In this document: in pieces, positions 41,498 through 48,277 of the stretch
Numbering within the stretch: the stretch's first letter is position 1
Layout: every line of letters starts with the position of its first letter
Assembly (NCBI RefSeq): GCF_002871795.1
Contig: NZ_PNHL01000005.1
Span: forward strand, 205,196-269,195
Source: Brachybacterium sp. UMB0905
Lineage (GTDB): Bacteria > Actinomycetota > Actinomycetes > Actinomycetales > Dermabacteraceae
Length of the DNA stretch: 64,000 bases
Direction: 5' to 3'
Position numbers and translations under genes: made by a program
The notes under the pieces: generated by a model
What the model saw: the letters and a program-made list of their open reading frames with translations, nothing else
The model's database searches: none
Told to the model about the DNA's origin: nothing

Positions 41498-42151
41498 TCA
41501 GCTCTCCCGCAGCGCCACGAAGGCCTTCAGGGTGCCGAGGATCGTGGTGGTTGCCACGTCGGTGACATCGCGCCCTTCGAGCTGCTCACGCAGCATCAGA
41601 TCAATGAAGATCCCGGTGAGCAGCTGGGCGAGATCCGCGGTGGGCAGCAGCGCCCGCTCCCCCGTCTCCGCCATCCGATGTTCGAGCAGTGCCCCGATGC
41701 GCTCGCGCATCCTCCCGAGCTGATGGGCGAGGGCTGCCCGCATCTCAGCGTCGCGCAAGGAGCGGGCGGTCGCCTCGGTGTACAGCAGCGACCACTGTCG
41801 CCCGAAGGGGCGGATCCCCTCGAACACCGCGAGCATCTGCCGCATATCCACGCCCTCCCCGGCCCCATGCGGATCACCCTGCATCGCGCGGCCCACGGCG
41901 GCATCGGCGATCGCCAGCAGTTCAGTGGTGACCTCATCGAACAGCGCCAGGAACACCTCTTCCTTGTGCGTGAAGCTGGAGTAGAAGGCGCCGCGGGTGA
42001 AGCCGGCGGCCTTCACCAGGTCATCGACGGTGGCCGCGTCGATCCCCTTGTCGACGAAGACATCGAGCGAGGCCCGCACCAGGCGGGTGCGGGTGTTCTC
42101 CTTGCGGCGCGTGGCGGCGGATTCCGGCAGCGGCTCAAACAGCTCCGTCAT
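41498..42151 (-). CDS. TetR family transcriptional regulator
   Basis: 217 residues from ATG at 42151, with GGAG 5 nt upstream. The N-terminal helix-turn-helix is TRLVRASLDVFVDKGIDAATVDDLVKAAGFTRGAFYSSFTHKEEV (parts 22-66), the clear TetR pattern. The C-terminal ligand domain is helical. It is divergent from an MMPL pump and is the likely repressor of the mmpL-yhgE operon and of itself. Its leader is a chain of overlapping mini-ORFs described separately. Confidence 0.93.
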   Translation of the reverse strand: MTELFEPLPESAATRRKENTRTRLVRASLDVFVDKGIDAATVDDLVKAAGFTRGAFYSSFTHKEEVFLALFDEVTTELLAIADAAVGRAMQGDPHGAGEGVDMRQMLAVFEGIRPFGRQWSLLYTEATARSLRDAEMRAALAHQLGRMRERIGALLEHRMAETGERALLPTADLAQLLTGIFIDLMLREQLEGRDVTDVATTTILGTLKAFVALRES

Positions 42152-42171
42152 CGCATCTCCAGCTCGGTCAT
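42148..42171 (-). CDS. Leader mini-ORF 3 of tetR (7 codons)
   Basis: ATG at 42171 opens a 7-codon frame reading MTELEMR, ending in a TGA that overlaps the tetR ATG by 4 nt (ATGA). GGAG lies 5 nt before the ATG. The codon string begins with the same MTEL as TetR itself, showing descent by tandem duplication of the tetR start region. Translation would deliver ribosomes directly to tetR. No product function is implied. Confidence 0.45.
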   Translation of the reverse strand: MTELEMR

Positions 42172-42191
42172 GGGTTCTCCACCTCGGTCAT
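42168..42191 (-). CDS. Leader mini-ORF 2 of tetR (7 codons)
   Basis: ATG at 42191, peptide MTEVENP, TGA overlapping the ATG of the next mini-ORF. GGAG sits 5 nt upstream of the ATG. It is the middle link of the chain and matches mini-ORF 3 at 14 of the first 15 bases. Confidence 0.45.
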   Translation of the reverse strand: MTEVENP

Positions 42192-42207
42192 CGCATCTCC
42201 AGATCGG

Positions 42208-42231
42208 TTATGGCGCCCCGCGGTCGGTCAC
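42208..42231 (-). CDS. Leader mini-ORF 1 of tetR (7 codons, GTG start)
   Basis: GTG at 42231, peptide MTDRGAP, TAA overlapping an ATA codon where the next unit would start. The unit at 42188-42211 keeps a stop-overlap frame but its ATG has become ATA, so the chain is broken there. No Shine-Dalgarno is visible. Confidence 0.25.
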   Translation of the reverse strand: MTDRGAP

Positions 42232-42314
42232 AGGGCGGATGCGCGCGCGGCGCATCACAGGGAAAGGAGGTGCCTCACCTCCGGACAGGTGCCGTTGAAG
42301 ACGGCTCGGCAGGG

Positions 42315-42347
42315 CCGATAGTATCGGACCGATACGATCGCGTATCG
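42315..42347. promoter_or_regulatory. TetR-type operator: overlapping TATCGG dyads
   Basis: Four half-sites alternate in orientation: CCGATA (42315), TATCGG (42322), CCGATA (42329), and TATCGA (42343). Adjacent pairs form perfect dyads: CCGATAGTATCGG (42315-42327) and GTATCGGACCGATAC (42321-42335); CGATACG/CGTATCG (42330-42336, 42341-42347) form a third with a 4-nt spacer. It lies between divergent tetR and mmpL, so a TetR dimer (or pair) can silence both. Confidence 0.75.
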
Positions 42348-42434: not shown

Positions 42435-45200
42435 GTGTCCTCATCGCTCTACCGCCTGGGCCGCACCATGGCCGCACTGCGCTGGAAGATCGTCGCGGTG
42501 TGGACCGTTCTGCTCCTGCTCAGCGGCGCCCTGGCGGCGGGACTCGGCGGCAGCTTCTCCACCGAGTTCGAGATCCCCGGTACCGAGGGCCAGGAGGGCC
42601 TGGACACCCTCGCCACCCGCTTCCCCGAGCTCGCCGGGACCTCCGGACAGGTCGTGCTCGTGACCCGCGACGGCAGCGACATCGATGATCACCGCGCGGA
42701 GATCACCGAGCTCATGGGAGACATCGCGGAGGTGGACGGGGTTGCCGAGGCACCCGACCCCTTCGGTGAGATCTCCCCCGGCACCCGCAACGACGATGAC
42801 ACCGCGATGGTCGCGCAGTTCCAGATGGACGGTCAGGTCGGGGAGTACCCCGCGACCGCGGTCGAGGAGATCCAGCACCTCGTCTCCCAGGCGGACTCCG
42901 ACGGCCTGGAGATCCACGCGGGCGGGCAGTTCCTCCAGAGCGCAGAGATTCCCTTCGGGGCCGGCGAGATCATCGGCGTCATCGTCGCCCTGATCATCCT
43001 CGCGATCGTGTTCCGGTCCTTCGTCCCCGCGGTCATCCCGATCGTCACCGCCATCACCGGGGTGGGCATCGCGATGCTCTCCCTCATGGCGCTCTCCGCC
43101 GGGATCTCGATCCCCTCGGTCACCACGGCGCTCGGGGCCATGCTCGGCCTCGCCGTTGGCATCGACTACGCCCTGTTCATCCTCTCCCGTCACCGCGACC
43201 AGCTCGCGCGCGGGGATGACGTGCGCGAATCCATCGGCAAGGCCCTCGCGACCTCCGGAAGCGCCGTCATCTTCGCGGGACTGACCGTCGTGATCGCCCT
43301 GGTGGGCCTGTTCATCACCGGGATCCCGTTCCTGACCATCATGGGTGTGGCCGCCGCTGCGACCGTCGCACTGTCCGTGGTGGTGGCGCTGACCCTGCTG
43401 CCAGCGCTCATGGGGATCCTGGGTGAGCGCCTGCGCCCCCGTCGGATCCGCCGTCTGATGGCCCAGCATGACGGCGCCCTGCCTGCCGATGCTGAGGGGC
43501 AGCACTCCCCCGGCGGCTTCAAACTTGCCTGGGTGCGCCTGGTCACCAAGGTTCCCGCGCTCACCATCGTGCTGGTCATCATCGGCATCGGGGCCGTCTC
43601 CGTTCCCGTGAAGGACCTCGAGCTCGCCCTGCCGGACCTCGGCACCGAGCCTTCCGGCTCCCCCGCCCGCGTCACCTACGACCTCATCAGTGAGGAGTTC
43701 GGTCCCGGCTACAACGGGCCGCTGCTCGTGACCGCTGACATCATCAACTCCACCGACCCCCTCGGTGTGGTCGAGGACCTCGAGAACAACATCGTGGATC
43801 TCGGCTCGGTGGAGGAGATCCAGATCGCCACTCCCAACCGTGGCGCCGACATGGCCGTCGTGGTGGTGATCCCCGAGGGCGGACCCACCGACGAGAGCAC
43901 CAAGCAGCTCGTACGGGACCTGCGCGAGAGCGCCCCGGCCTGGGAAGAGGAGCTGCGGATCAGCGAGATCACCGTCACCGGCTCCACCGCCATCGGCATC
44001 GACGTCACCGACAAGCTCTCCGCCGCGCTACTGCCCTTCGCGCTGTTCGTGGTGGGGCTGTCGCTCGTGCTGCTGATGCTCGTGTTCCGGTCCATCTGGG
44101 TGCCGCTGAAAGCCTCGATCGGCTACATCTTCTCGGTGCTGGCCGCCTTCGGAGCCACCGCGATGGTGTTCGAGTACGGCTGGCTGAACGGGCCGCTGTT
44201 CGTGGACGTCAACGGGCCGGTGGTCTCCTTCATGCCGATCATCGTCATGGGCGTGCTGTTCGGCCTGGCCATGGACTACGAGGTGTTCCTCGTCTCGCGG
44301 ATGCGCGAGGAGTACGTGCACACCGGTGATGCGCGCGGCGCGATCGAACGCGGCTTCACCGCCAACGCCCCGGTGGTGACCGCCGCCGCTTTGATCATGG
44401 TGTCCGTCTTCGCCGGGTTCGTCACCAGCGGCTGGTTCATGCTGCAGCCCATCGCGGTCGCCCTGGCAGTGGGCGTGCTCGTCGACGCCTTCGTGGTGCG
44501 CATGACGCTCGTCCCGGCTGTCCTGGCCCTCCTGGGCGAGCGTGCATGGCGCCTGCCGGCCTGGCTGGATCGCCGCCTGCCGGTCGTGGATGTCGAGGGC
44601 GAGGGCCTCGCCGGTGTGCTCGAGCATCGTCGTTGGAGCGCCGAGCACGGCGAGCACGCCCTGCGCCTGGAGGACACCATCGCCCCGCTGATCGGGGAGG
44701 ACGGCACCATCGGCCCCCTCACCGGCACCCTCTCCCCCGGCCAGCTGCTGGTGGCCCGCACCAGCGATGACGCAGCCCGCGCCGCTTTCCTCGCGCTCGC
44801 CGGTGGGCGGCTGCAGCCCACTTCCGGGATCCTCGCCGTACATGACCGCATCGCCCCCGATGACCTTCCGGCCATGCAGGCGCGCGTTCACTGGATCGGT
44901 GCCGGGGCTCCTGTCGCCCGGCGTCTGGCCGCTCTGCCCGCCCGGAACCTGGGCCGCGAGCTCATCATCATCGAGGACCTTGCGGACCTCGCCCATGCCG
45001 CCGCGGCAGAGGATGACGCGCTCGTCGAACGTCTCGATGCGCTGCTAGCCGCCGGCGCCACGATCATCGTCGGCTCCCGCGTCGAGGGCACCTCCCCGGC
45101 CGAGCAGCACCTGCACCGCACGCTGCGTGACCCGCGGCGCCTGACAGCTCTAACCCTCCAGCGCTCCCCCGACCACTCCCGTGAAGGAGCTCTCGTATGA
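42435..45200 (+). CDS. MMPL/RND exporter with degenerate ABC-ATPase-like C-terminus
   Basis: 921 residues from GTG at 42435, GGAGG upstream. Residues 1-740 are a complete MMPL transporter: helix 1, an extracytoplasmic loop, the first bundle with GLAVGIDYALFILSRHRDQLARG, then the second half with LFGLAMDYEVFLVSRMREEYVH. Residues about 745-921 are soluble and follow an ABC nucleotide-binding domain outline (LSPGQLLVA, LALAGGRLQPTSG, RELIIIEDLADL, GATIIVGSR), but the Walker A is absent (RTSDDAARAAF). Its stop overlaps the yhgE-like gene (ATGA). Probably exports an envelope component with the next protein. Confidence 0.88.
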   Translation: MSSSLYRLGRTMAALRWKIVAVWTVLLLLSGALAAGLGGSFSTEFEIPGTEGQEGLDTLATRFPELAGTSGQVVLVTRDGSDIDDHRAEITELMGDIAEVDGVAEAPDPFGEISPGTRNDDDTAMVAQFQMDGQVGEYPATAVEEIQHLVSQADSDGLEIHAGGQFLQSAEIPFGAGEIIGVIVALIILAIVFRSFVPAVIPIVTAITGVGIAMLSLMALSAGISIPSVTTALGAMLGLAVGIDYALFILSRHRDQLARGDDVRESIGKALATSGSAVIFAGLTVVIALVGLFITGIPFLTIMGVAAAATVALSVVVALTLLPALMGILGERLRPRRIRRLMAQHDGALPADAEGQHSPGGFKLAWVRLVTKVPALTIVLVIIGIGAVSVPVKDLELALPDLGTEPSGSPARVTYDLISEEFGPGYNGPLLVTADIINSTDPLGVVEDLENNIVDLGSVEEIQIATPNRGADMAVVVVIPEGGPTDESTKQLVRDLRESAPAWEEELRISEITVTGSTAIGIDVTDKLSAALLPFALFVVGLSLVLLMLVFRSIWVPLKASIGYIFSVLAAFGATAMVFEYGWLNGPLFVDVNGPVVSFMPIIVMGVLFGLAMDYEVFLVSRMREEYVHTGDARGAIERGFTANAPVVTAAALIMVSVFAGFVTSGWFMLQPIAVALAVGVLVDAFVVRMTLVPAVLALLGERAWRLPAWLDRRLPVVDVEGEGLAGVLEHRRWSAEHGEHALRLEDTIAPLIGEDGTIGPLTGTLSPGQLLVARTSDDAARAAFLALAGGRLQPTSGILAVHDRIAPDDLPAMQARVHWIGAGAPVARRLAALPARNLGRELIIIEDLADLAHAAAAEDDALVERLDALLAAGATIIVGSRVEGTSPAEQHLHRTLRDPRRLTALTLQRSPDHSREGALV

Positions 45201-48200
45201 CCCGCCTGGCCCACCCCCGCACCCTGCTCGTCGTTCTGCTGCTGCCCGTGCTGGTGGCGGCCCTGGGCCTGTGGGCCCTCAGCGGACGCGTGGACCGCCT
45301 GGATGCCGTGCCCGCTGCCGTGGTGAACCTCGATGAGGGGGCCGAGGTCACCGACGCCGACGGGAACACCCAGATGGTGCCCTTCGGCCGGCTGCTCGCC
45401 GGTGCGCTTACTCAGCCCGGCACGCTCGAGGACGCCGACGCCCCCGACACCACGGGCTTCGACTGGCAGCTGACCAGCCACGATGATGCGAAGGAGGGGC
45501 TCGCCGATGGCACCTACTCCGCCGTCATCGTGATCCCGGAGAACTTCTCCCGCGACCTCGCCACCATCGGCACCCCCGAGGCGACGCCCGCCATCATCGA
45601 GGTCACCACCAACGACGCCTCCGGGCAGATCAACTCCCTGGTCGGCGCCGCCGTGGCCGAGGCTTCCGCCTCCACCATGGGCGGGCAGATGGCCGAGCAG
45701 TACCTCGATGGGCTGTACCTGGGCTTCAACAAGCTCGGCGATGGTCTGCGGGAGGCCGCCGACGGCTCCGAGGAGCTCGCCGATGGTGCGGGGGATCTCG
45801 CCGATGGCACGGGTGAGCTCGCCGATGGCGCTGATGACCTGGCGGACGGTGCCTCCCAGGCCGCCGATGGCACCGCGGAGTTCCGCGACGGCGTGTGGTC
45901 TCTCGCCGATGGCACGCGTCTGACCGCGAACGGCGCCGATCGTCTCGCCGGTGGTCTGGACACCCTCGCCGATGGCACCGAGGAGCTCGCCGACGGCACG
46001 GCCGCGCTCCAGGACGGGATGCGCGGAACCGCCGAACAGCCCGGTCTCCTGGATGGCGCCCAGCAGCTGGCCGACGGCGTGACCGGCGACGGCACCGCCC
46101 AGAACCCGGGGCTCGAGGGCGGCGCTGAGCAGCTCGCAAGCGGACTGGAGCAGTACGCCGACGGCGTCGCCCAGGCCGGCACGGCCGTGACCGGCGACGG
46201 CACCGCCCAGAACCCCGGACTGCTGCCCACCGCCCGGCAGGTCGCCGGTGGCACCGAAACCCTCGGGGAGGGCGCGCAGCAGGCGGCCGATGGTGCCGCG
46301 GCGCTCGGAGACGGCGCCCAGCAGCTCGCCGACGGCGCGACCCAGCTGGATGAGGGGGCGACGGAGCTCGCCGCCGGCGCCTCCCAGCTGGGCGAGGGTG
46401 CTCAGGACCTCGCGGACGGCACCGCTGAGATGGCCGACGGTGCGAGCGGCATCGCCGACGGCATGAGCGAGCTCGGCGAGGGGGCGCAGCGCACCGCCGA
46501 GGGCACCGCCCAGCTCGCCGAGGGCATCAACGGAGACGGCACGATGCTCAATCCCGGCATGGTCGCCACCGCCCAGGGGCTCGCCGATCAGCTGTGCGGC
46601 GCCTCCCCCGGATCGCCGGAATGCCTGCAGGCCCAGGGCCTGCTGGCCTACGCGCAGGGCGTCGATGAGGGCCTGAACGGGGACGGCACCGCCCAGAATC
46701 CCGGGCTCGTCGCCGGCACCCAGGGGATCGCCGAGGGCCTGAACGGCGATGGCACCGCCGAGAACCCCGGCCTCGTCATGGGAGTGCAGGGCATCTCCAC
46801 CGGCCTGAACGGGGATGGCACCGCCCAGAACCCGGGGCTCGCCGCCGGAGCGCAGGGCATCGCCGAGGGCCTGAACGGGGACGGCACCGCCGAAAACCCC
46901 GGGCTCGTCGGAGGCATCGAGGCGCTCGCCACAGGGGTCACCGGGGACGGCACACCCGAGAACCCGGGCCTTGCCGCCGGGGCGCAGGGCATCGCCGATG
47001 GGCTCAACGGAACCCCAGAGCAGCCCGGCCTGGTGCAGGGCACCCAGCAGCTGGCCGATGGCATCAACGGCACCGCCGAGCAGCCGGGCCTGGTGCAGGG
47101 CACGCAGGGCATCGTCGCCTACGGCGAGGGCCTGCAGCTGGCGTTCGAGGGCGATGGCACCGCCCAGAACCCGGGACTGACCGCCTCCGCGCAGCAACTC
47201 GCCACCGGGGCGCGGCAGAGCGCCGCGGGCGCCGGGCAGCTCGTCGGTGGCGTGACCAGCCTGCGCGATGGGCTCGCCCAGTACGCGGGCGGCGTCGATG
47301 AGCTGGCCGGGGGTACCGGGCAGCTCGCCGAGGGCGCTCGCGCCAGCGCCGATGGTGCCGTGGAGCTCGCGGAGGGCACCGGGGAGCTGTCCCAGGGCGC
47401 CGATGCGCTCGGGATGGGCGCCGACCAGCTCGCCTCCGGCTCCCGCCAGCTCGCGGGCGGCACCCGGGACCTGGCCAATGGCGCCGGAGAGCTCGCGGAC
47501 GGCACCGGGGAGCTCGCCGACGGCTCCGACGAGCTCGCCGACGGGCTGCGAGAGGGCGCCGACGCCGCCCCGTCGTACGACGAAACGGATCGCCAGCGCA
47601 TGGGTGAGATGGCCGCCGACCCCGTCGGCACCTCCCTGACCCGCCAGAACGAGGCCAGCGGCGCGGACACCGCGACGTTCCCCTTCGTCACCGCGCTCGC
47701 GCTGTGGCTGGGCGCGTTCGGCACCTTCCTGCTGCTGCCGGCGCTGCAGCGGCGCCTGCTGGACCGGGCCCTGCCGATGTGGCAGGTGGTGCTGCGCTCG
47801 CTCGCTCCCGCGCTCGCGATCGCCGTGGTGCAGACCGTGGCGGTGCTGGCAGTGCTGACCATCGTCGGGATCTCCCCCGTCTCCCCGGTGTCGGTGGGGC
47901 TGATCGCCCTGGCGGGCGCGCTGATGTTCGCGGCGCTGCACCAGACGCTGCTGGCGCTGCTCGGGGATCGGATCGGCCGAATCGCCTCGGTCGTGCTGAT
48001 GGTCCTGCAGGTAGTGACCCTGGTGGGTATCCTGCCGGTGCAGACCGCTCCGGGGCTGCTGCAGGCCCTCAGCTCCCTGATGCCGCTGTCCTTCGTCACG
48101 GAGGGGCTCGTGCATGCGGCGCTTGGCGGATCCCTCGTGAGCACCTCCGGGACGCTCGCCGCAATCCTCACCGGCGGCCTCGTATGCCTGCTGGTGACGC

Positions 48201-48277
48201 TGGTGGTCTCCCGCGGCGCCCGGCGCAGCGATAAGGCGGACCACATCGACGCCACGGCGCTGCCCGCGGCCGCCTGA
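45197..48277 (+). CDS. YhgE/Pip-domain membrane protein with very long repeats
   Basis: 1026 residues. An N-terminal helix precedes the YhgE/Pip ectodomain (PAAVVNLDEGAEVTDADGN, DAKEGLADGTYSAVIVIPENFS). Residues about 175-790 are heptad-like repeats of the form GAxxLADGxxEL interleaved with nine or so (N/T)GDGTAQNPGL repeats. Six C-terminal helices (about 805-1010) form an ABC-2-like membrane domain, with DRALPMWQVVLRSL. Such proteins are phage-infection or ESX-linked factors and commonly sit with an ABC ATPase; here the ATPase seems replaced by the tail of the preceding MMPL protein. Convergent with dnaE2, 16 nt apart. Confidence 0.9.
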   Translation: MTRLAHPRTLLVVLLLPVLVAALGLWALSGRVDRLDAVPAAVVNLDEGAEVTDADGNTQMVPFGRLLAGALTQPGTLEDADAPDTTGFDWQLTSHDDAKEGLADGTYSAVIVIPENFSRDLATIGTPEATPAIIEVTTNDASGQINSLVGAAVAEASASTMGGQMAEQYLDGLYLGFNKLGDGLREAADGSEELADGAGDLADGTGELADGADDLADGASQAADGTAEFRDGVWSLADGTRLTANGADRLAGGLDTLADGTEELADGTAALQDGMRGTAEQPGLLDGAQQLADGVTGDGTAQNPGLEGGAEQLASGLEQYADGVAQAGTAVTGDGTAQNPGLLPTARQVAGGTETLGEGAQQAADGAAALGDGAQQLADGATQLDEGATELAAGASQLGEGAQDLADGTAEMADGASGIADGMSELGEGAQRTAEGTAQLAEGINGDGTMLNPGMVATAQGLADQLCGASPGSPECLQAQGLLAYAQGVDEGLNGDGTAQNPGLVAGTQGIAEGLNGDGTAENPGLVMGVQGISTGLNGDGTAQNPGLAAGAQGIAEGLNGDGTAENPGLVGGIEALATGVTGDGTPENPGLAAGAQGIADGLNGTPEQPGLVQGTQQLADGINGTAEQPGLVQGTQGIVAYGEGLQLAFEGDGTAQNPGLTASAQQLATGARQSAAGAGQLVGGVTSLRDGLAQYAGGVDELAGGTGQLAEGARASADGAVELAEGTGELSQGADALGMGADQLASGSRQLAGGTRDLANGAGELADGTGELADGSDELADGLREGADAAPSYDETDRQRMGEMAADPVGTSLTRQNEASGADTATFPFVTALALWLGAFGTFLLLPALQRRLLDRALPMWQVVLRSLAPALAIAVVQTVAVLAVLTIVGISPVSPVSVGLIALAGALMFAALHQTLLALLGDRIGRIASVVLMVLQVVTLVGILPVQTAPGLLQALSSLMPLSFVTEGLVHAALGGSLVSTSGTLAAILTGGLVCLLVTLVVSRGARRSDKADHIDATALPAAA

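What the first reader, a model, noticed from the sequence alone, without database searches (positions are those of the whole stretch)
42148..42231. Chain of overlapping 7-codon mini-ORFs leading into a TetR gene
Seen directly: on the - strand, 20-bp tandem repeats place a start codon every 20 nt (GTG 42231, ATA 42211, ATG 42191, ATG 42171, ATG 42151 = tetR). Each frame is 7 codons plus a stop that overlaps the next start by 4 nt (peptides MTDRGAP, a broken ATA unit, MTEVENP, MTELEMR). GGAG sits 5 nt before each ATG. The peptides begin MTE like TetR, so the start region was duplicated. Inference: a ladder of termination-reinitiation that sets or buffers repressor dose, and whose copy number could change by slippage. 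I know of no described TetR leader of this form.
Basis: partly seen in the sequence, partly recalled or inferred. Interest (0 to 1): 0.85.

Follow-up and report, generated by a model that had tools for sequence, protein, structure and literature searches.

The report
Relay of mini-genes before a repressor
The start signal of a repressor gene has been copied head to tail so that ribosomes could be passed along tiny reading frames into the gene, and the same layout has arisen independently before other genes in related bacteria.

Summary
The repeat is real. On the - strand four 20-nt units precede tetR (42231, 42211, 42191, 42171; tetR ATG at 42151). Each mini-frame is 7 codons and its stop overlaps the next start by 4 nt. 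Only units 42191 and 42171 have both GGAG and ATG; 42211 starts ATA, and 42231 has no SD and is predicted to be paired. None of 37 Brachybacterium tetR leaders read has the ladder; 15 of 37 have exactly GAGGAGCC-ATGACCGA at the start. One window unit equals that 8-nt spacer plus the first 12 coding nt, so the gene's own start was duplicated.

The layout recurs. In samples of about 400 genomes, 13 arrays (12 origins) of SD+RTGA repeats at gene starts have periods 2 mod 3, giving 4- or 1-nt stop/start overlaps, against one with 1 mod 3. Two homologous arrays with 0 mod 3 give in-frame starts instead. At one junction copy number is 0, 1 or 6 among related species.

Best reading: start-region duplications kept in tolerable frames and translated as a termination-reinitiation relay. 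A dose-setting role is unproven. Mycobacterial MIRUs are the closest known kind.

The parts
42331..42346 (.). Probable TetR operator (GATACGCGATCGTATC palindrome) between the divergent tetR and MMPL genes
   Evidence: Palindromes of the form GATAC..GTATC are visible at this place in the relatives' leaders listed; window position. Binding not tested.
42318..42325 (-). GATACTAT, candidate -10 of tetR; transcript start then about 42310 (inferred)
   Evidence: Ends 166 nt before the tetR ATG, against 41-131 nt in the 25 of 37 relatives where a -10-like motif was matched. The consensus scan found no sigma-70 site.
42266..42282 (-). GGAGGTG-AGG-CACCTCC hairpin in the leader; role unknown
   Evidence: Read; folds; not seen by eye in the leaders
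42212..42231 (-). Unit 1: GTG mini-frame VTDRGAP*, diverged, probably inactive
   Evidence: 11-12 of 20 identity to other units; no SD; GTG predicted paired, P(unpaired) 0.0
42192..42211 (-). Unit 2: start reads ATA; carries the GGAG that serves unit 3
   Evidence: 18 of 20 identity to unit 4
42172..42191 (-). Unit 3: ATG mini-ORF MTEVENP*, TGA overlaps next ATG; likely entry point
   Evidence: most accessible ATG, P(unpaired) 0.80
42152..42171 (-). Unit 4: ATG mini-ORF MTELEMR*, TGA overlaps tetR ATG; carries the tetR SD
41498..42151 (-). tetR, 217 aa TetR/AcrR-family regulator
   Evidence: Pfam TetR_N 6.8e-12; homologues in 37 of 38 genomes of the Brachybacterium genus sample
42435..45200 (+). 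Divergent MMPL-family transporter gene, likely target of TetR (inferred)
   Evidence: Pfam MMPL 4.4e-87; the same divergent start is visible in relatives' sequences
45197..48277 (+). ABC2-membrane/YhgE-like gene overlapping the MMPL gene end by 4 nt
   Evidence: Pfam ABC2_membrane_3; coordinates; the name YhgE is recalled

Best explanation
The array arose by tandem duplication of the tetR translation start region: 8 nt of SD and spacer plus the first 12 coding nt, 20 nt in all (shown by comparison with relatives). Because the period is 2 mod 3 and the start reads ATGA, each extra start opens a 7-codon mini-ORF that ends on the next start (shown in sequence). Ribosomes most likely load at the start at 42191 or 42171, or directly at tetR, terminate at ATGA, and the same ribosome or 30S subunit restarts one step down until it reaches tetR (inferred). 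The duplication survived because this frame keeps extra initiations harmless or mildly useful for tetR, whereas a period of 1 mod 3 would send ribosomes out of frame past the tetR start (inferred from the frame bias in other genomes). The two upstream units look decayed (inferred).
For: Origin: GAGGAGCC-ATGACCGA exactly in 15 of 37 Brachybacterium leaders and GAGGANCC before the start in 23 of 37; 0 of 37 have another RTGACCGA in the 130 nt before the start. Leader length: 166 nt from the -10-like motif to ATG; minus 80 it falls inside the relatives' range. Recurrence: arrays of SD+RTGA directly before genes for ArgR, ROK and two LuxR-type response regulators, Usp, MCE, metallo-beta-lactamase-fold, CysN-like, ABC permease, NRPS and others. 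Frame: at gene starts 13 arrays are 2 mod 3 and 1 is 1 mod 3 (p = 0.0009; 12 v 1 counting L170/L176 once, p = 0.0017). With RTGB starts, which cannot make the overlap, 0 of 30 arrays read meet the same test with periods 2 mod 3, against 13 of 40 with RTGA. L168 has periods 20 and 23; the homologous L170 and L176 have 47,47 and 47,35: length differs by multiples of 3 while the overlap stays. Copy number at one permease junction: 6, 1 or 0 units with ATGA kept. Folding: 42191 and 42171 are more open than the tetR ATG (0.80, 0.59, 0.40).
Against: No expression, ribosome profiling or transcript-start data. No second genome with this tetR ladder. Off gene starts the same split is 3 v 3, and Fisher's test of 13:1 against 3:3 gives only p = 0.06. 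Raw pattern counts are not strongly above the reversed-pattern control: 2 v 2, 23 v 7 and 13 v 10 genomes. One RTGB array (L178, period 17, 2 mod 3) misses my 90-nt gene-start cut by 4 nt; it lies in open frames in all three frames, so its status is unclear. Two homologous arrays with period 18 (0 mod 3) sit at a gene start and escaped my criterion. One array at a gene start is 1 mod 3 (L079). A single mini-frame with a 4- or 1-nt overlap, no SD or repeat required, is present in 10 of 37 relatives' leaders, so an isolated overlap is common. In the ROK leaders the overlap is absent in 9 of 15. The leader is not more folded than shuffles (z 0.73).
Confidence: 0.58

Rival explanations
1. Selected dosage ladder: unit number is a tuning knob that sets TetR level, changes by slippage and is kept for that purpose.
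For: Copy number differs between related species at two other loci. Several ladder genes are regulators: tetR, argR, ROK, two response regulators. Diverged copies that keep the overlap in the window, L083 and L091 (copy identity 0.62 and 0.74) and L168 suggest retention beyond recent slippage.
Against: The argR ladder is in 1 of 30 and the recR-linked one in 1 of 30 loci read. Two of four window units have lost a start or SD. Many ladder genes are not regulators. No expression data.
Confidence: 0.18
2. Neutral untranslated minisatellite in the leader; the frame relations are an accident.
For: The overlap follows automatically from one duplication length. Raw array counts resemble the reversed-pattern controls in two of three searches. 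Single overlaps are common in leaders without repeats.
Against: Bias of 13 to 1 for 2 over 1 mod 3 at gene starts and none meeting the test among 30 RTGB arrays, one borderline; unit lengths that differ by multiples of 3.
Confidence: 0.19
3. Inserted mobile repeat of the MIRU type rather than a copy of the gene's own start.
For: Same -4 nt coupling geometry as PMC12548453 describes for MIRUs; 77-bp repeats in senX3-regX3 (PMC9392950) are also 2 mod 3.
Against: The unit resembles the relatives' own SD plus first codons. The nearest other place in the window has 4 mismatches of 20. Unit sequences differ between the ladder genes printed, apart from the homologous pair L170/L176.
Confidence: 0.03
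4. DNA-level repeat used as binding sites for TetR or another protein.
For: The array lies between the operator region and tetR.
Against: A palindromic operator is visible upstream in relatives that lack the array; the unit is not palindromic; several arrays elsewhere lie at operon junctions.
Confidence: 0.02

Closest known systems
Mycobacterial interspersed repetitive units (MIRUs; Supply 1997, not held, known here only through passages of PMC12548453, PMC9392950, PMC3914561, PMC3635867)
   Same: Short repeats at start codons, an ORF in the repeat coupled to the gene at -4 nt (PMC12548453), variable copy number (PMC3635867), 77-bp unit in senX3-regX3 (PMC9392950), which is 2 mod 3
   Different: MIRUs are 46-101 bp, scattered at 41 loci (PMC3914561) and appear to be mobile (PMC12548453); here the unit is 20 nt, derives from the gene's own start and was found at one place in the window; tetR is the first gene of its transcript as far as the sequence shows
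Termination-reinitiation at overlapping ATGA/TGATG gene pairs (PMC6728339, abstract start and passages; PMC10666635, listing and abstract start)
   Same: Identical stop/start geometry and presumed ribosome handover
   Different: There the upstream frame is a full gene; here it is a chain of 7-codon frames copied from the downstream gene
Short uORF that delivers a ribosome to a gene, and the engineered bicistronic design (PMC12548453 passages; PMC6302717, listing only)
   Same: Tiny first cistron feeding the real start
   Different: One uORF, not a tandem array of the gene's own start
CsrA-regulated iraD leader with short uORF (PMC5574718, listing and abstract start)
   Same: Gene translation coupled to a short upstream ORF
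   Different: Single uORF under a known RNA-binding regulator

Membership tests
Termination-reinitiation coupling (ATGA type) | Stop of upstream ORF overlaps next start by 4 or 1 nt | tested here: met
   Four of four unit junctions overlap by 4 nt, though one start is ATA and one GTG lacks an SD
Termination-reinitiation coupling (ATGA type) | Downstream translation depends on translation of the upstream ORF | not testable with these tools
   Needs reporters or ribosome profiling
MIRU | ORF inside the repeat coupled at -4 nt to the following gene | tested here: met
   geometry only
MIRU | Same repeat dispersed at many loci, apparently mobile | tested here: inconclusive
   No other copy in 64 kb (nearest 4 mismatches of 20); no whole genome is held
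MIRU | Unit of 46-101 bp, not derived from the gene where it sits | tested here: not met
   20 nt, resembling relatives' own start region
Variable-number tandem repeat | Unit number differs between close relatives at the same locus | tested here: inconclusive
   Relatives of this tetR have none of the array (0 of 37); shown only for other ladders
TetR/AcrR regulator | TetR_N DNA-binding domain | tested here: met
   Pfam 45.4 bits, cut-off 24

The most novel reading that the evidence does not exclude
Tandem duplication of a gene's own SD-plus-start is a general, fast route by which Actinomycetes grow ribosome relays before genes. The reading frame acts as the filter (2 mod 3 gives a relay, 0 mod 3 gives multiple in-frame starts, 1 mod 3 is purged), and unit number is a heritable, slippage-prone setting of translation, here of a repressor.
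Probability: 0.33. Interest if true: 0.8.

Novelty: new variant of a known kind. Interest (0 to 1): 0.58.

Why it matters
Natural arrays of 0, 1 or 6 coupled mini-cistrons before the same gene in related species would let one measure how reinitiation passes down a chain. If it holds up, the frame bias is a cheap genomic sign that such mini-ORFs are translated, and copy number would give bacteria a mutable translation setting outside promoters and coding sequence. Gene callers may also misplace starts in such leaders.

Tried and rejected
Rfam search of the window: one tRNA only. Viral contigs: the exact 20-nt pattern gave 0; the looser pattern gave 13 loci, of which the script listed 10 arrays (it drops arrays whose leading 60 nt repeat; three loci were not listed): nine have all periods 0 mod 3, one (L056) has 31,30, and in none does the last start open 100 codons. 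tetR in viral contigs: none. Plasmids: 11 records with short matches, none covering 80%. RNA fold of the leader: not stabler than shuffles. Sigma-70 and terminator scan: nothing. A TetR-operator role for the repeat was rejected on position. My gene-start criterion (in-frame stop under 90 nt upstream of the first start, last start opening 100 codons or more) is arbitrary and biased against period 0 mod 3; two such arrays at a gene start turned up afterwards, so I compare only 2 with 1 mod 3. The operator regex mixed operator with -10 sequences in several rows, so its operator distances are not used. Two-copy search in 98 genomes: six genomes with one hit each; four of the five printed open frames over 100 codons (three 2 mod 3, one 0 mod 3), the fifth (1 mod 3) opens 41 codons, the sixth (L255) was not printed; similarity of the two copies is 13-18 of 24, mostly too low to call duplications. 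A weak idea that the MMPL C-terminus carries an ATPase-like domain got no Pfam support.

Papers: searches listed no paper whose title or abstract start describes tandem start-region ladders; listings were capped at 12-20 and most listed papers were not opened. Passages were read of PMC6728339, PMC12548453, PMC3635867, PMC9392950, PMC3914561; other papers named were seen as listings with abstract starts only.

Full report
OBSERVATION. The - strand carries units GTGACCGACCGCGGGGCGCC, ATAACCGATCTGGAGATGCG, ATGACCGAGGTGGAGAACCC, ATGACCGAGCTGGAGATGCG and then tetR ATGACGGAGCTG. All four mini-frames are 7 codons and stop 4 nt into the next start. The array is far from chance. U2 and U4 match at 18 of 20 positions and TRF also reports a 40-nt period, which suggests a two-unit duplication (inferred). 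U1 is diverged (11-12 of 20). Upstream SDs: U3, U4 and tetR have GGAG 5 nt before ATG; U2 has GGGG before ATA; U1 has none.

RELATIVES. The closest protein (P0001, 96%) lies on a short contig whose DNA could not be fetched; the next listed are at about 69-73%, those with names mostly Brachybacterium. Leaders were read for 15 loci and for 37 loci, one for each of the 37 of 38 genus-sample genomes with a match (the two sets overlap). None shows the ladder; 0 of 37 has a second RTGACCGA within 130 nt of the start. Of the 37, 15 have exactly GAGGAGCCATGACCGA, 19 GAGGAGCC, 23 GAGGANCC and 25 ATGACCGA at the start. One has a 13-nt repeat further upstream (L047). The window's period is the 8-nt spacer plus the first 12 coding nt, so the origin is a duplication of the gene's own start region. 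Without asking for an SD or a repeat, 10 of 37 relatives also have at least one upstream mini-frame that overlaps the start by 4 or 1 nt: a lone overlap is common; the tandem array is not. A family-wide search added two distant homologues (leaders not read).

SETTING. tetR is divergent from an MMPL gene and a YhgE/ABC2-like gene, and the same divergent MMPL start is visible in relatives. A palindrome GATAC..GTATC and GATACTAT-like sequence lie upstream in relatives and window. They place the likely transcript start near 42310, above the whole array. This is inferred: the consensus scan found no sigma-70 promoter.

DOES THE LAYOUT RECUR? I searched genomes for three SD+start copies without fixing the frame. 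Order sample, N5 ATGA: 2 of 396 genomes, reversed control 2. Class sample, N5 RTGA: 23 of 394, reversed control 7. Class sample, N6 RTGA: 13 of 394, reversed control 10. Raw counts alone therefore say little. Placing the arrays says more: of 40 arrays with loci, 15 meet my gene-start criterion. 13 of these have periods 2 mod 3 only, 1 has 1 mod 3 (L079) and 1 is mixed (L087). Two further arrays listed without loci were fetched later. They are homologous, have period 18 (0 mod 3), and give in-frame alternative starts of one gene; my criterion is biased against that class, so the fair comparison is 13 against 1 (p = 0.0009; 12 against 1, p = 0.0017). Arrays off gene starts split 3 to 3, so the contrast itself is only p = 0.06. 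With RTGB starts, 65 of 394 genomes match; of the 30 arrays with loci, 2 meet the criterion (one 0 mod 3, one mixed) and none with periods 2 mod 3. One (L178, period 17) misses it by 4 nt and is unclear. Further RTGB arrays were not read.

EXAMPLES. An ornithine carbamoyltransferase gene and argR joined by two 32-nt mini-ORFs, the upstream stop overlapping the first; a Brachybacterium gene after recR with three 17-nt units; two histidine kinase/LuxR-type junctions (L083, L091); MCE, Usp and metallo-beta-lactamase-fold genes; six identical 14-nt MRSQR* units between two BPD-type permease genes (L167). L163 has the 1-nt TGATG overlap, the others printed 4 nt. L168 has periods 20 and 23. The homologous ROK leaders L170 and L176 have 47,47 and 47,35: length differs by a multiple of 3 while the overlap stays.

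EVOLUTION. Two ladders were seen in one species only: argR in 1 of 30 and the recR-linked gene in 1 of 30 loci read (two searches found 58 and 37 genomes with homologues). At the L167 junction, of 30 loci read out of 120 genomes with a match, one has 6 units, five have 1, 22 have a plain overlap, one (L227) has an in-frame array instead, and one (L225) lacks the upstream gene overlap. At the ROK leader 6 of 15 have 1 to 3 coupled mini-ORFs by a test that itself requires the overlap, and 9 have none, some with what look like decayed copies. So unit number varies, frames are often kept, and ladders also decay.

MECHANISM. Shown: duplication, frame geometry, recurrence, and a bias against 1 mod 3 in a small sample. 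Inferred: that 42191 and 42171 are used. Folding predicts 42191 (0.80) and 42171 (0.59) more open than tetR (0.40), with U1's GTG closed; overall structure is ordinary. The likeliest flow is entry at 42191, 42171 or tetR itself and handover at ATGA. Whether this raises, lowers or leaves TetR level unchanged is unknown.

COMPARISON. Coupling by termination-reinitiation at ATGA is described in PMC6728339 (abstract start and passages). The review PMC12548453 (passages) says MIRUs insert at start codons, couple at -4 nt, and probably thereby disturb expression little; the 77-bp unit in senX3-regX3 (PMC9392950, passages) is also 2 mod 3. The window's array works like that but fails MIRU membership on unit origin and length. 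I found no account of self-derived start-region ladders in the searches listed under Tried and rejected; most subscription papers are not in that library.

VERDICT. Observation confirmed; origin explained; relay likely but untested; dose control open. New variant of a known kind.

Noticed in passing
window 42266-42282 (-): The leader contains GGAGGTG-AGG-CACCTCC, a perfect SD/anti-SD hairpin; CACCTCCTTTC resembles the 3' end of 16S rRNA (recalled, not tested).
   Followed up: partly
   Followed up: partly
   Followed up: partly
L167/L223 and relatives L224-L252: A 14-nt unit ATGAGGAGTCAGCG between ABC permease genes is present 0, 1 or 6 times among species; a ready natural series for reporter tests.
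   Followed up: yes
L208-L222: ROK-family regulator leader shows what looks like an expanding and decaying array of about 47-nt start units, near a TTAGTCTA..TGGACTAA palindrome.
   Followed up: partly
L019, L020, L021, L023, L027, L028, L043, L045, L050, L052: Leaders of 10 of 37 tetR relatives hold at least one upstream mini-frame whose stop overlaps the tetR start by 4 or 1 nt; chance level not tested.
   Followed up: partly
window 45677-47564: YhgE-like protein gene with long 42- and 66-nt repeats.
   Followed up: no
window 44640-45197: The C-terminal ~180 aa of the MMPL protein has no significant Pfam match and looks like a separate domain.
   Followed up: partly
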